Virus record (IMG/VR): IMGVR_UViG_3300044638_002927
Span: 1-24,537 of that record
Direction: 5' to 3' (one strand)
Length of the DNA: 24,537 bases
Source: a virus
Shown: positions 12,691 through 15,549 of the stretch, one piece after another
Position numbering within the stretch: position 1 is the stretch's first letter
Layout of the letters: each line of letters begins with the position of its first letter
Notes under the pieces: generated by a model
Database searches by the model: none
What the model was told of the DNA's origin: nothing
The model's input: the letters and a program-made list of their open reading frames with translations, nothing else
Translations under genes and position numbers: made by a program

Positions 12691-12906
12691 TTAAACAGTT
12701 TGAGCGATGAGGTTGGTTCGATAAGCAGGGCAGTTGAGCCAAGCCTTTTCAAACAGGTCAAAGAATGCCTCATGCAGTATTGCGCTGTTGTTCGAATCTG
12801 CTCGAATCATTGCCTCGCCGATGTGAGTGGCAAAGCCACCATATGAGCCTTTGGACAATTCAAGAGCCGCATACAAAAGTTTATCTTGCTGAGAATAGTC
12901 TGACAT
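12691..12906 (-). CDS. 71-residue small phage protein
   Basis: From ATG 12906, with TTTGAAAGGC upstream; the in-frame TTG at 12921 lies in the ribosome site and is rejected. Sequence: MSDYSQQDKLLYAALELSKG, then SYGGFATHIGEAMIRADSNN and a helical end (EAFFDLFEKAW). The Gly-Gly-Phe-Ala-x-x-x-Gly-Glu-Ala and Ala-Asp-Ser-x-Asn pattern recalls a small protein type I have seen on plasmids and phages, function unknown. The stop codon is part of a GTTTAAAC site (12689-12696). Confidence 0.65.
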   Translation of the reverse strand: MSDYSQQDKLLYAALELSKGSYGGFATHIGEAMIRADSNNSAILHEAFFDLFEKAWLNCPAYRTNLIAQTV

Positions 12907-13273: not shown

Positions 13274-13852
13274 TTAAACGCTATCCATCTCGCCATGGTC
13301 GGGGCAGTGAGGTGCACCCATTTCAGTCAGCCACTTACCCGCCACTCGAACAGTGTAACCACAGTCACGGCAGACACATTTAAGCAAGCGGGTTGTCTGT
13401 TTCTTTTGAGCGTTCGAGGGTATCAGGTCAGCGTGAGGGTAAACACCGAGCCGAGCCAGCACGGGTTCTGCCCATCGTTTAAACGCCTCGCCCGCATGAG
13501 TGGCGGTCAACTTACCCTCAAGGCCAATGGCACGGGCAGTTTTACCGAATTTTGAGCCGTGCCCATCGTTCGGATGGCAAGCGTGAACCAACTCGTGAGC
13601 CAGAATGTCAAGCACTCGCATTGAGTCGCTGATTGTGGGCGAGATGAAAATTTCGGCGTGGCTGTCAGCGGATGCACGGGCTGACCAGCACTCACCGATT
13701 CGCCGATTCTTGGCGCTCAGGGCTGACTTTGAGGGGAAGCCGCACGATGAGCGAACCTCAAGGGGCAAGTCAACGCCGTGCTGTTTAAACAGTGAGCGAA
13801 GCTCTGTGGTTGCTTGTGAGAGCCACTGCTCTCGTGTCTGTGTCTGTGTCAT
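13274..13852 (-). CDS. SprT-like zinc metallopeptidase
   Basis: 192 residues from ATG 13852, which has AAAGGGC upstream; the frame is open to 13990 but the extra residues have no start site and overlap operator repeats. It has the SprT/SPRTN-type motif HELVH (86-90, catalytic E87) with H98 in HPNDGHGSKF as third ligand. A C-terminal zinc ribbon follows (C161-x2-C164 ... C183-x2-H186). SprT-like enzymes degrade proteins crosslinked to DNA or other DNA-bound proteins. It is the first gene of the accessory operon, so it may act early on host or replication-blocking proteins. Its stop lies in a GTTTAAAC site. Confidence 0.85.
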   Translation of the reverse strand: MTQTQTREQWLSQATTELRSLFKQHGVDLPLEVRSSCGFPSKSALSAKNRRIGECWSARASADSHAEIFISPTISDSMRVLDILAHELVHACHPNDGHGSKFGKTARAIGLEGKLTATHAGEAFKRWAEPVLARLGVYPHADLIPSNAQKKQTTRLLKCVCRDCGYTVRVAGKWLTEMGAPHCPDHGEMDSV

Positions 13853-14112: not shown

Positions 14113-14189
14113 ATATGCGAATGATTCTCATTTAGGTACATCGAGCCTATATGCAAATGGTTCTCATTATCATTAGCTTATTGATAATG
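14113..14189. promoter_or_regulatory. Two Fur-box-like direct repeats and an overlapping inverted repeat
   Basis: ATATGC-x-AATG-x-TTCTCATT occurs at 14113-14132 and 14149-14168 (18 of 20 identical). The core AATGATTCTCATT differs from the Fur half-palindrome AATGATAATCATT at two bases, and the second copy continues as TCATTATC. CATTATCA (14165-14172) and TGATAATG (14182-14189) form a further perfect inverted repeat. This strongly resembles tandem ferric-uptake-regulator sites of proteobacteria. There is no gene directly beside it; the nearest are the SprT operon leftward and the predicted RNA rightward. Confidence 0.5.
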
Positions 14190-14401
14190 CACTATCGTTT
14201 CACCATGTGGAATGTGCTTTATGTAAGTGTGCGCTTACTTTGATAGGGGGGAGGGGGTATGCGTGGTGTTGTAAATATTTGTGAACCCTCCTCTGCACTG
14301 AAAAAGCTAAATCAGACTGTCCAACACAATAAGCAAAGTTGAATTGGAAAAAGGGGGTAATCAGTGAGGTGTGTCTTTAAGTTTCATTTGGGCGCAAGGC
14401 G
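14190..14401. other. Noncoding stretch between Fur-like sites and the predicted RNA
   Basis: No gene seen. It contains a GTAAGTG/CGCTTAC hairpin (14223-14238), directly followed by a purine run (GGGGGGAGGGGG, from about 14246). Further on is an A/G-rich tract before 14402. A promoter for the RNA should lie here but I could not identify one with confidence. Confidence 0.4.
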
Positions 14402-14606
14402 GCTACCCGATAGCTTGTATAGGTAAAATAATGTTTAACAGAAAGCTGATTAGAGTGTCTGCCACGAGGAGAGCCTACTTCTAGGCTTACTCTGGTTTAT
14501 CTGTGCGGCGTAGTCACTACGATGGCACACCAGCTTCCAAGCGGTCATAACAGGGGTTTACAGGATTACCCTCTGTCGAGTCGGGTAGCAAAACCGACAC
14601 TCCTTT
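14402..14606 (+). ncRNA. Candidate structured RNA with long-range pseudoknot and four hairpins
   Basis: Two long-range helices interlock: GCTACCCGA (14402-14410) with TCGGGTAGC (14581-14589), 9 bp perfect, and GAGTGTC (14453-14459) with GACACTC (14596-14602), 7 bp perfect. Within lie these hairpins: AGCCTA-CTTC-TAGGCT (14472-14487) extended by GAG/CTC and CCA/TGG; CGTAG-TCA-CTACG (14509-14521) extended by TGTGC/GCACA; a stem at 14529-14545; and ACAG-GGGT / ACCC-CTGT (14550-14576). A local stem, GAGTCGG/CCGACACTC followed by CCTTTT, could act as terminator and competes with the pseudoknot. No open frame fits. The plus strand is favoured by the T-run. Matches no RNA family I recognise, and it is not a tRNA or tmRNA. 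Confidence 0.6.
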
Positions 14607-14619
14607 TGTCAACACTATA

Positions 14620-14844
14620 CTAGAAAATCATCCCATCATCAAATGCTTTGAGAATCTTTCTTGCTTCTTGTTTTGCGCCTTTTTCGTAAACCTTAATCTT
14701 CTTGGGATTTGTGACTTTCCTCTTGTCTATCCTGTCTTGTGCTAACTTTGTTGCCAAACCTTTTCCCCAAGATTCCAGTGCTTGCGCCATTTCCTTGCGC
14801 TGACGCTGTTTTGCCAGTTCTTCAGGTGTTAGTTGAATTGCCAT
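14620..14844 (-). CDS. 74-residue Lys-rich protein, single-gene unit
   Basis: ATG 14844 to TAG 14620 (AAAGGG about eight bases upstream). The protein is highly charged and helical: MAIQLTPEELAKQRQRKEMA, then KGLATKLAQDRIDKRKVTNP, then KKIKVYEKGAKQEARKILKA, ending FDDGMIF. It is probably nucleic-acid-binding because of its charge. It has its own strong sigma-70-type promoter (14946-14974) and a structured leader, and stands alone between the predicted RNA and the late operon. It may be a late-gene regulator or a host-takeover peptide, but no family is recognised. Confidence 0.65.
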   Translation of the reverse strand: MAIQLTPEELAKQRQRKEMAQALESWGKGLATKLAQDRIDKRKVTNPKKIKVYEKGAKQEARKILKAFDDGMIF

Positions 14845-14859
14845 AAAAAAAGCCCTTTA

Positions 14860-14904
14860 GGGGTGATACAGTCGCACCCCCGAGAACTCCCGAGGCTGTA
14901 CCAC
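14860..14904 (-). promoter_or_regulatory. Structured 5' leader of the 14620-14844 gene
   Basis: GGGGTG (14860-14865) / CACCCC (14875-14880) gives a 6-bp hairpin. It competes with a longer pairing of GTG-TACAG (14863-14871) and CTGTA-CAC (14896-14904). On the minus strand the hairpin is followed by TAAAGGGCTTTTTTT ending at the ATG, so ribosome site and U-run coincide. This could be an attenuator or translational switch. CCCGAG occurs twice inside. Confidence 0.4.
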
Positions 14905-14945
14905 TTCTAAAAGGCTCATAGTCTGGTGCGAACAAACTTACCTCC

Positions 14946-14974
14946 ACTATACAAGATTCTGATTCTGATGTAAA
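14946..14974 (-). promoter_or_regulatory. Sigma-70-type promoter for the 14620-14844 gene
   Basis: On the minus strand, -35 TTTACA (14974-14969), 17-base spacer, -10 TATAGT (14951-14946); each box matches consensus at five of six. Transcription would begin near 14939 and leave a leader of about 95 bases. This is the best promoter seen in the window. Confidence 0.7.
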
Positions 14975-14999
14975 GTGTGTGCTAACTTCCAAGACGCAT

Positions 15000-15085
15000 G
15001 AAGACTGTTCACTTTGAAAGCTGGTGAGTCCAACGCAGTCTTCAGCCGTGTTGGTGGAAACGGTTTAGCTCCGTGGGATTTTGTT
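15000..15085 (+). other. Inverted repeats upstream of the packaging genes
   Basis: GAAGACTG (15000-15007) and CAGTCTTC (15036-15043) form a perfect 8-bp long-loop stem. CCAAC (15030-15034) pairs with GTTGG (15050-15054). CCGT-ACGG-CCGT around 15045-15075 allows alternate hairpins ending in a T-rich stretch. This 5' region of the late operon could be a leader structure or part of a packaging (pac/cos) site. Confidence 0.4.
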
Positions 15086-15114
15086 TGTTGTTGAATTGAA
15101 CCCAATCCTGCTTT

Positions 15115-15549
15115 ATGGAAGCCACCAACAAAACTTCTTCCCTAACTGGACAAAAGATGAATGTAGTAGATGCACTCCCTGATAGCCTAAAGAAAACCAA
15201 GGGCAGACCCAAAGGTTCTGGGAAGATGACCTTATCCAAGTATGCAGACAATCCCACTGCTCTCATACTACCCAAGACTGAACAACAGAAAATAAAAGAA
15301 CTCAAAGACCTCCTGATAAACAGTGCTGGTTCTAATGTCGTCTACAAAGCAGTCGAGATTGCAATGAATGATGAACACCCCGCACAAATGGCGGCACTCA
15401 AACTCTGTATGGACAGAATGCTTCCCGTTTCACTATTTGAAAAAGAAGGAAAACAGCGTTCCGCTGTCAACATCACCATCTCAGGCATAGGTGGTGTCAC
15501 TATTGGTGAAAACCCTATAGATGCAGAAGATATAGAGGCAAAAGAATGA
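15115..15549 (+). CDS. Probable terminase small subunit
   Basis: 144 residues from ATG 15115; an in-frame ATG at 15157 (130 residues, starting MNVVDALPDSLKKTKGRPKG) has GGA about eight bases upstream and is a good alternative. The N-terminus is basic with KGRPKGSGKMT, then a helical region (EQQKIKELKDLLINSAGSNV; HPAQMAALKLCMDRMLPVSL) and an acidic tail. This organisation (basic GRPKGS segment, helix bundle) and a place two genes before TerL suit a DNA-recognition subunit of the packaging enzyme. Assigned mainly by context; no HTH motif is certain. Confidence 0.6.
   Translation: MEATNKTSSLTGQKMNVVDALPDSLKKTKGRPKGSGKMTLSKYADNPTALILPKTEQQKIKELKDLLINSAGSNVVYKAVEIAMNDEHPAQMAALKLCMDRMLPVSLFEKEGKQRSAVNITISGIGGVTIGENPIDAEDIEAKE

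What the first reader, a model, noticed from the sequence alone, without database searches (positions are those of the whole stretch)
14402..14606. Undescribed-looking pseudoknotted RNA beside the packaging operon
Two perfect long-range helices (9 bp and 7 bp) interlock as A-B-A'-B', enclosing two strong hairpins and two weaker stems, and a terminator-like stem shares bases with both helices. This density of complementarity in about 200 bases with no gene is unlikely by chance. The competing local stem (GAGTCGG/CCGACACTC) suggests two alternative folds, as in a riboswitch or attenuator. A phage RNA just before terminase genes also raises the idea of a packaging RNA or an RNA-based regulator. 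I recognise no known family.
Basis: partly seen in the sequence, partly recalled or inferred. Interest (0 to 1): 0.8.

Follow-up and report, generated by a model that had tools for sequence, protein, structure and literature searches.

The report
Exchangeable structured RNA gene in phages
A family of lake phages carries, just outside its DNA-packaging genes, a small non-coding RNA gene with a conserved knotted fold, and close relatives have entirely different conserved RNA-like elements at the same spot, so this looks like a trading post for phage RNAs of unknown function.

Summary
The structure is real. The 9-bp and 7-bp helices lie where stated and interlock. One sequence alone is weak evidence (1.3% of shuffles do as well), but 31 distinct homologues settle it: 95% of pairs kept, 14 pairs with two-sided compensation, better than every shifted control and a tree-aware null. 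No Rfam 15 family matches.

All 26 testable homologues have a sigma70-type promoter (spacer 17) firing into the element on the minus strand; the plus side scores like random DNA. The RNA (~14607 to ~14376, minus) points away from the terminase genes. The riboswitch and terminator readings lack separate support.

The element is one allele of a slot. Close TerL relatives carry three other conserved elements there: type B (~240 nt), C (~420 nt) and D (~300 nt plus an HNH gene). None has a credible Rfam match and none is matched by the type A model. Some lineages have no slot. RNA type changes at least 26 times on the TerL tree. Type A travels with an upstream gene for a 74-aa protein that diverges much faster than the RNA.

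Best reading: a stand-alone, probably trans-acting accessory RNA gene in an exchange hotspot. Expression and function are inferred, not shown.

The parts
14376..14607 (-). Type A structured RNA gene (about 232 nt; 5' end near 14607, 3' end near 14376)
   Evidence: 31 distinct full-length homologues, covariation; covariance model R1 finds it once per phage record; 5' end inferred from the promoter, 3' end from where conservation stops
14614..14642 (-). sigma70-type promoter of the RNA, TTGATG-N17-TATAGT, lying in the 3' end of the 74-aa gene
   Evidence: a promoter of at least 9/12 with spacer 17 in 26 of 26 homologues, with different hexamers in the three groups
14402..14410 (-). Helix P1, one strand (pairs with 14581-14589)
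   Evidence: invariant in 31/31
14581..14589 (-). Helix P1, other strand
   Evidence: invariant in 31/31
14453..14459 (-). Pseudoknot helix PK, one strand (pairs with 14596-14602)
   Evidence: two pairs with compensatory change; L092 changes two neighbouring pairs on both sides, GAGTGTC/GACACTC to GGATGTC/GACATCC
14596..14602 (-). Pseudoknot helix PK, other strand
   Evidence: as above
14465..14541 (-). Helix P4 (14465-14470 with 14536-14541) closing a domain that holds P5 and P6
14472..14487 (-). Hairpin P5 (AGCCTA/TAGGCT)
   Evidence: invariant
14492..14533 (-). Stem P6 with a peripheral extension (14503-14528) that is absent in 16 of 31 homologues
   Evidence: GG/CC to AA/TT double compensation in group 3
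14549..14577 (-). Hairpin P7
   Evidence: base pair 14549/14577 varies as A-T, G-C, C-G, G-T
14378..14392 (-). Invariant, apparently unpaired 3' segment GCCCAAATGAAACTT
   Evidence: near-invariant in alignments A2 and A4
14620..14844 (-). Gene for a 74-aa protein, same strand, directly upstream of the RNA; accompanies type A only
   Evidence: both in 43 loci, neither in 42, never one alone; loci overlap and are partly chosen by RNA or ORF; no Pfam or PHROGs family; two-helix model
14848..14937 (-). Long leader hairpin ending in T7 just before the ATG of the 74-aa gene; also precedes the HNH gene of type D
   Evidence: -40 kcal/mol, z = -4.6; conserved in L021, L027, L031, L061, L071
14946..14974 (-). 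Promoter TTTACA-N17-TATAGT within the right-hand flank; in type B and C phages it starts directly at the RNA
14222..14330 (.). Left conserved flank of the slot (GGGGGGAGGGGG element); lies directly before TerS in relatives without a slot
14942..14992 (.). Right conserved flank of the slot

Best explanation
It is a non-coding RNA gene on the minus strand with its own promoter. It makes a roughly 230-nt RNA that folds into a pseudoknot-closed, multi-stem structure. It sits in a slot between the leftward genes and the rightward packaging/structural genes, where phages of this group exchange whole RNA cassettes by recombination in the conserved flanks. Shown by computation: the conserved fold, the promoter, the alternative alleles, the slotless relatives and the frequent exchange. 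Inferred: that the RNA is made from a host sigma70 promoter soon after infection, that it acts in trans as a folded RNA (on a host or phage protein or RNP), and that its role is accessory and diversifying, for example host takeover, counter-defence or exclusion of rival phages, rather than a fixed step such as DNA packaging.
For: Compensatory changes in 31 homologues. Minus-strand promoter with spacer 17 in 26/26 type A homologues (score 9-10 of 12; plus side mean 7.1, random DNA mean 7.0) and in the type B and C phages. RNA core 74-82% identical between groups while the neighbouring 74-aa protein is only 28-34% identical, so the RNA is the constrained part. Types B, C and D occupy the same slot. 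RNA type changes at least 26 times on the TerL tree of 84 rows. Slotless relatives exist, so the RNA is not needed by the wider group. One copy per phage record.
Against: No transcript data. No clear intrinsic terminator at the 3' end on the minus strand, so read-through into the leftward genes is possible. G-U versus A-C changes do not separate the strands clearly (about 12 against 8 events by hand count); consensus folding favours minus only modestly (0.67 against 0.55 for type A, 0.39 against 0.32 for type B). TerL itself may recombine, which would inflate the number of exchanges. Trans action rests on context alone. Single-sequence folding of type B is no better than shuffles.
Confidence: 0.5

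Rival explanations
1. Cis-acting leader of the leftward transcript: the nascent RNA modifies RNA polymerase (processive antitermination, as HK022 put does) or otherwise controls the leftward genes.
For: The RNA begins 6-7 nt after the -10 box in groups 1 and 3 and in most type B phages. No intrinsic terminator found before the leftward genes. Lambdoid put is also a nascent RNA acting on early-gene transcription (PMC9378689).
Against: About 520 nt, including a conserved element and paired operator-like sites, separate the RNA from the first leftward gene. The RNA is far larger than I recall for put (a few tens of nt, own knowledge). Only one copy per phage record.
Confidence: 0.2
2. Antisense RNA to the 5' leader of the rightward (late) transcript, delaying terminase and structural genes until late in infection.
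For: It is encoded opposite the late operon between a conserved flank that abuts TerS in slotless relatives and TerS itself; lack of a clear strand bias in G-U/A-C changes would fit an RNA whose complement is also transcribed.
Against: No plus-strand promoter is conserved beside it. A simple antisense RNA needs no conserved pseudoknot or invariant unpaired segments. Slotless phages do without it.
Confidence: 0.1
3. Plus-strand RNA of the late operon: packaging RNA (pRNA-like), attenuator or riboswitch.
For: Position next to the terminase genes in every phage that has it; plus-strand folding slightly better than shuffles.
Against: Promoter on the other strand in 26/26; types swap under nearly identical TerL; TerL relatives without any slot; terminator stem not conserved as a terminator; no match to any Rfam family.
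Confidence: 0.08
4. Selfish mobile RNA-plus-endonuclease element: HNH gene or 74-aa gene plus structured RNA spread as homing cassettes.
For: Type D always has an HNH gene (5 of 5 loci; Pfam HNH E = 1.4e-11). The 74-aa gene has the same leader hairpin and lies in the same place. A near-repeat CACTATACTAGA/CACTATACAAGA flanks the 74-aa cassette.
Against: Types B and C have no protein gene and still spread. The RNA is more conserved than the protein. Group I or II intron models do not match (Rfam), and the site lies in no coding exon.
Confidence: 0.1

Closest known systems
GOLLD and ROOL RNAs (orphan structured RNAs of phages and prophages)
   Same: Phage-encoded, pseudoknotted, no known function, often near tRNAs (PMC12286853); here a tRNA-like element lies between slot and TerS in some relatives.
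   Different: 200-240 nt rather than 600-800+; no Rfam match; one site beside the packaging genes with several interchangeable types.
HK022 put RNA
   Same: Structured RNA near the start of a phage transcript driven by a host-type promoter.
   Different: Larger, pseudoknotted, distant from the downstream genes; cis action not tested.
phi29 packaging RNA (pRNA)
   Same: Phage RNA of similar size; encoded near packaging functions here.
   Different: No Rfam match; transcribed away from terminase; absent or replaced in phages with near-identical TerL.
Phage morons / anti-defence hotspots
   Same: Independent promoter, inserted between conserved modules, content differs between close relatives.
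   Different: The cargo is a structured RNA, with or without a small protein gene.

Membership tests
Any described RNA family (Rfam 15) | Score above the curated cut-off of a covariance model | tested here: not met
   No hit at gathering over the whole window, none up to E = 5 over 14200-14800, both strands; B, C and D also without a credible match
GOLLD / ROOL | Match to the family model | tested here: not met
   (my recollection is that both families are in Rfam; PMC12286853 took their profiles from Rfam)
GOLLD / ROOL | Homo-oligomeric RNA cage | not testable with these tools
   needs cryo-EM or native gels
phi29 pRNA | Match to the packaging-RNA model | tested here: not met
phi29 pRNA | Required for DNA packaging, binds the portal/ATPase | not testable with these tools
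   near-identical TerL occurs with quite different elements or none, which argues against it
Riboswitch / attenuator of the terminase operon | Lies in the leader on the same strand as the controlled gene | tested here: not met
   conserved promoter is on the opposite strand; no conserved plus-strand promoter
Riboswitch / attenuator of the terminase operon | Conserved alternative terminator stem with T-run | tested here: not met
   T-run not conserved; outer stem broken in 12 of 31
HK022 put-type antiterminator | Nascent RNA makes RNA polymerase terminator-resistant | not testable with these tools
   position after a promoter fits; function needs a reporter assay
Type III toxin-antitoxin | RNA antitoxin of tandem repeats before a toxin endonuclease gene | tested here: not met
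   no tandem repeats seen in the RNA alignment; the neighbouring gene lies upstream of the RNA and matches no Pfam family; the padloc library was not searched
TnpB/IscB-type guide RNA | Associated RuvC/HNH effector of that family | tested here: not met
   74-aa protein has no domain; type D protein is a lone 151-aa HNH protein; types B and C have no protein
Group I / group II intron | Conserved catalytic core inside an exon | tested here: not met
   no Rfam match; intergenic

The most novel reading that the evidence does not exclude
The slot is a dedicated exchange locus for trans-acting RNA effectors: at least four unrelated classes of structured phage RNAs, each a diffusible weapon or shield against host defence or rival phages, trade places much as anti-defence protein genes do elsewhere.
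Probability: 0.25. Interest if true: 0.9.

Novelty: new variant of a known kind. Interest (0 to 1): 0.68.

Why it matters
Orphan structured RNAs of phages are few and their jobs unknown. Here is a compact one with a well-supported fold and a predicted promoter, and a natural experiment around it: phages with 97% identical terminase DNA that differ in which element they carry, plus relatives with none. That makes function testable by swapping or deleting one small cassette. It also suggests that accessory cargo hotspots of phages can hold RNA genes, which protein-centred surveys overlook.

Tried and rejected
Rfam, gathering and permissive thresholds, on all four types: nothing credible. DNA similarity in named phages and plasmids: only one 26-nt chance match in phages and none in plasmids. 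Scan of bacterial genomes for an invariant 18-mer of the RNA: none; for TerL relatives: one 4.7-kb contig binned with a lake beta-proteobacterium and without the slot, so the host is only hinted at. All-pairs covariation with a tree-based null: no significant pair for type A, one for type B. Covariance model of type A against type B, C and D loci: no hit up to E = 10, so common descent of the types is not shown, although A and B share a motif read on minus as GATAAACNAGAG...GGCTCTCC. Strand from G-U against A-C changes: inconclusive. Coding reading of the element: rejected because homologues differ by 1-nt indels and the frame shifts between groups. Single-sequence interlocking helices as proof: rejected. 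Structure of the 74-aa protein: a two-helix hairpin, not informative, so no fold search was run. A first promoter scan missed the group 3 promoters through an off-by-window bug; one search replaces it.

Full report
OBSERVATION. The window is a 24.5-kb linear virus record of IMG/VR. The reported helices are exactly there: 14402-14410 with 14581-14589 and 14453-14459 with 14596-14602, interlocked, enclosing several hairpins. One sequence does not prove much: 265 of 20,000 dinucleotide shuffles contain an interlocked perfect 9+7 bp pair, and 27 of 974 overlapping windows of the record do.

HOMOLOGUES. A TerL-based search, a search with the neighbouring 74-aa protein and three conserved-motif scans of IMG/VR gave 31 distinct full-length homologues in three groups. 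All that could be placed lie at the same spot beside TerS and TerL. Between groups the RNA core is 74-82% identical (up to 85% for L154), whereas the adjacent 74-aa protein is only 28-34% identical.

STRUCTURE. Counting pairs on the 31-sequence alignment: 95.1% of cells paired, 14 of 57 pairs with two-sided changes, covariation score 0.122 against 0.024-0.059 when partners are slid. A null that lets each column evolve independently on the tree gives 331 +/- 25 Watson-Crick cells against 497 observed over all helices, and 163 +/- 16 against 240 for helices already visible in the window. The pseudoknot helix is compensated in L092 by two neighbouring double changes (GAGTGTC/GACACTC to GGATGTC/GACATCC) and in group 3 by A-T to G-C. 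Helix P1 never varies, so covariation says nothing about it. An extra helix, P4, with four compensated pairs, was found from the alignment. P3 is weak (81% of cells). One peripheral stem is absent in 16 of 31.

STRAND. Promoter scans show TTGATG-N17-TATAGT at 14642-14614 and TTTACA-N17-TATAGT at 14974-14946, both on minus. Across 26 distinct type A loci the minus-strand flank always holds a promoter-like site of 9-10/12 with spacer 17, using three different sets of hexamers, while the plus-strand flank averages 7.1 and random 70-mers 7.0, of which 6.6% reach 9. Type B and C phages have TTTACA- or TTGAAC-type promoters at the equivalent place. Consensus folding is somewhat better on minus. A hand count of G-U against A-C changes is not decisive. 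I conclude that the RNA is most likely transcribed leftward, from about 14607 to about 14376, away from the terminase genes. This is inference; no transcript was seen.

THE SLOT. In many close relatives the flanks 14222-14330 and 14942-14992 are conserved but the content differs. Three further conserved non-coding elements occur there: type B (~240 nt), type C (~420 nt) and type D (~300 nt, with an HNH gene on the same strand). Type B shows one hairpin pair that covaries beyond a tree-based null (E = 0.01) and optional peripheral stems, though its single-sequence energy is no better than shuffles. C and D fold somewhat better than shuffles (z about -1.9). None has a credible Rfam match, and the type A covariance model does not match them. 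Among the TerL-chosen loci that hold the region, 38 have B, 7 C, 5 D, 3 A, and 10 match none. Of those ten, the ones examined (L063, L072, L073, L074, L078, L080) have the left flank or its G-rich element near TerS or a different gene order, and none has the minus-strand promoter. On a TerL DNA tree of 84 rows the type changes at least 26 times; the window's nearest neighbours, L002 and L003, are type B with TerL protein about 99.8% identical and DNA up to 97% identical. The RNA is therefore an exchangeable allele, not a fixed part of the packaging module. TerL recombination could inflate the count.

NEIGHBOURS. With the RNA on minus, the 74-aa gene lies upstream on the same strand and its 3' end contains the RNA promoter. 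It is preceded by a -40 kcal/mol hairpin ending in a T-run directly before the ATG, a leader shared with the HNH gene of type D, which may limit expression of both. Gene and RNA were found together in 43 loci, neither in 42, and never one alone; these loci include overlapping copies of the same contigs and loci chosen by one or the other, so the figure shows linkage, not an independent statistic.

MECHANISM. Most likely a stand-alone RNA gene whose folded product acts in trans in an accessory, diversifying role (0.5 for the whole statement). The steps shown are fold, promoter, alleles and exchange; time of expression, partner and effect are inferred.

COMPARISON. The nearest kind is the orphan structured RNAs of phages, GOLLD and ROOL, which are also of unknown function and often near tRNAs (PMC12286853). 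This RNA is not a member by sequence or structure model and is much smaller. HK022 put (PMC9378689) is the closest working analogy for a cis leader; pRNA of phi29 for a packaging RNA, with no support here beyond position.

VERDICT.

Noticed in passing
window 14117-14170: Two operator-like inverted repeats (TGCGAATGATTCTCATTT and TGCAAATGGTTCTCATTA; palindromic form TGAGAAT-n-ATTCTCA, resembling a Fur box) lie left of the slot; 29 type A-D loci have similar sites there, often in pairs about 54 nt apart, and such sites are rare elsewhere (66 in 1.8 Mb).
   Followed up: partly
L014:2352-2459 and L027:4480-4587; degenerate counterpart near window 15036-15130: tRNA-like element between the slot and TerS with intact acceptor, D and T arms but a 54-nt insertion in the anticodon region (Rfam tRNA, 44 bits); ARAGORN does not call it.
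   Followed up: partly
window 14222-14330: G-rich element (GGGGGGAGGGGG with a facing C-rich arm) kept before TerS throughout the group, including slotless relatives; possible packaging or late-promoter signal.
   Followed up: no
window 14848-14937 (minus): Very stable hairpin with terminal T-run placed right before the start codon of the 74-aa gene and, in type D phages, of the HNH gene.
   Followed up: partly
L216 (CAIUZV010000033.1): A relative with 86% identical TerL is binned with an uncultured beta-proteobacterium from a lake, the only host hint; it has no slot.
   Followed up: yes
window 12714-12810 (+): ARAGORN reports an odd tRNA with a four-base anticodon (tcaa) opposite a predicted minus-strand gene; not seen in relatives.
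   Followed up: no
window 13274-13852 (minus): SprT-like protein as first leftward gene, just under the Pfam cut-off.
   Followed up: no
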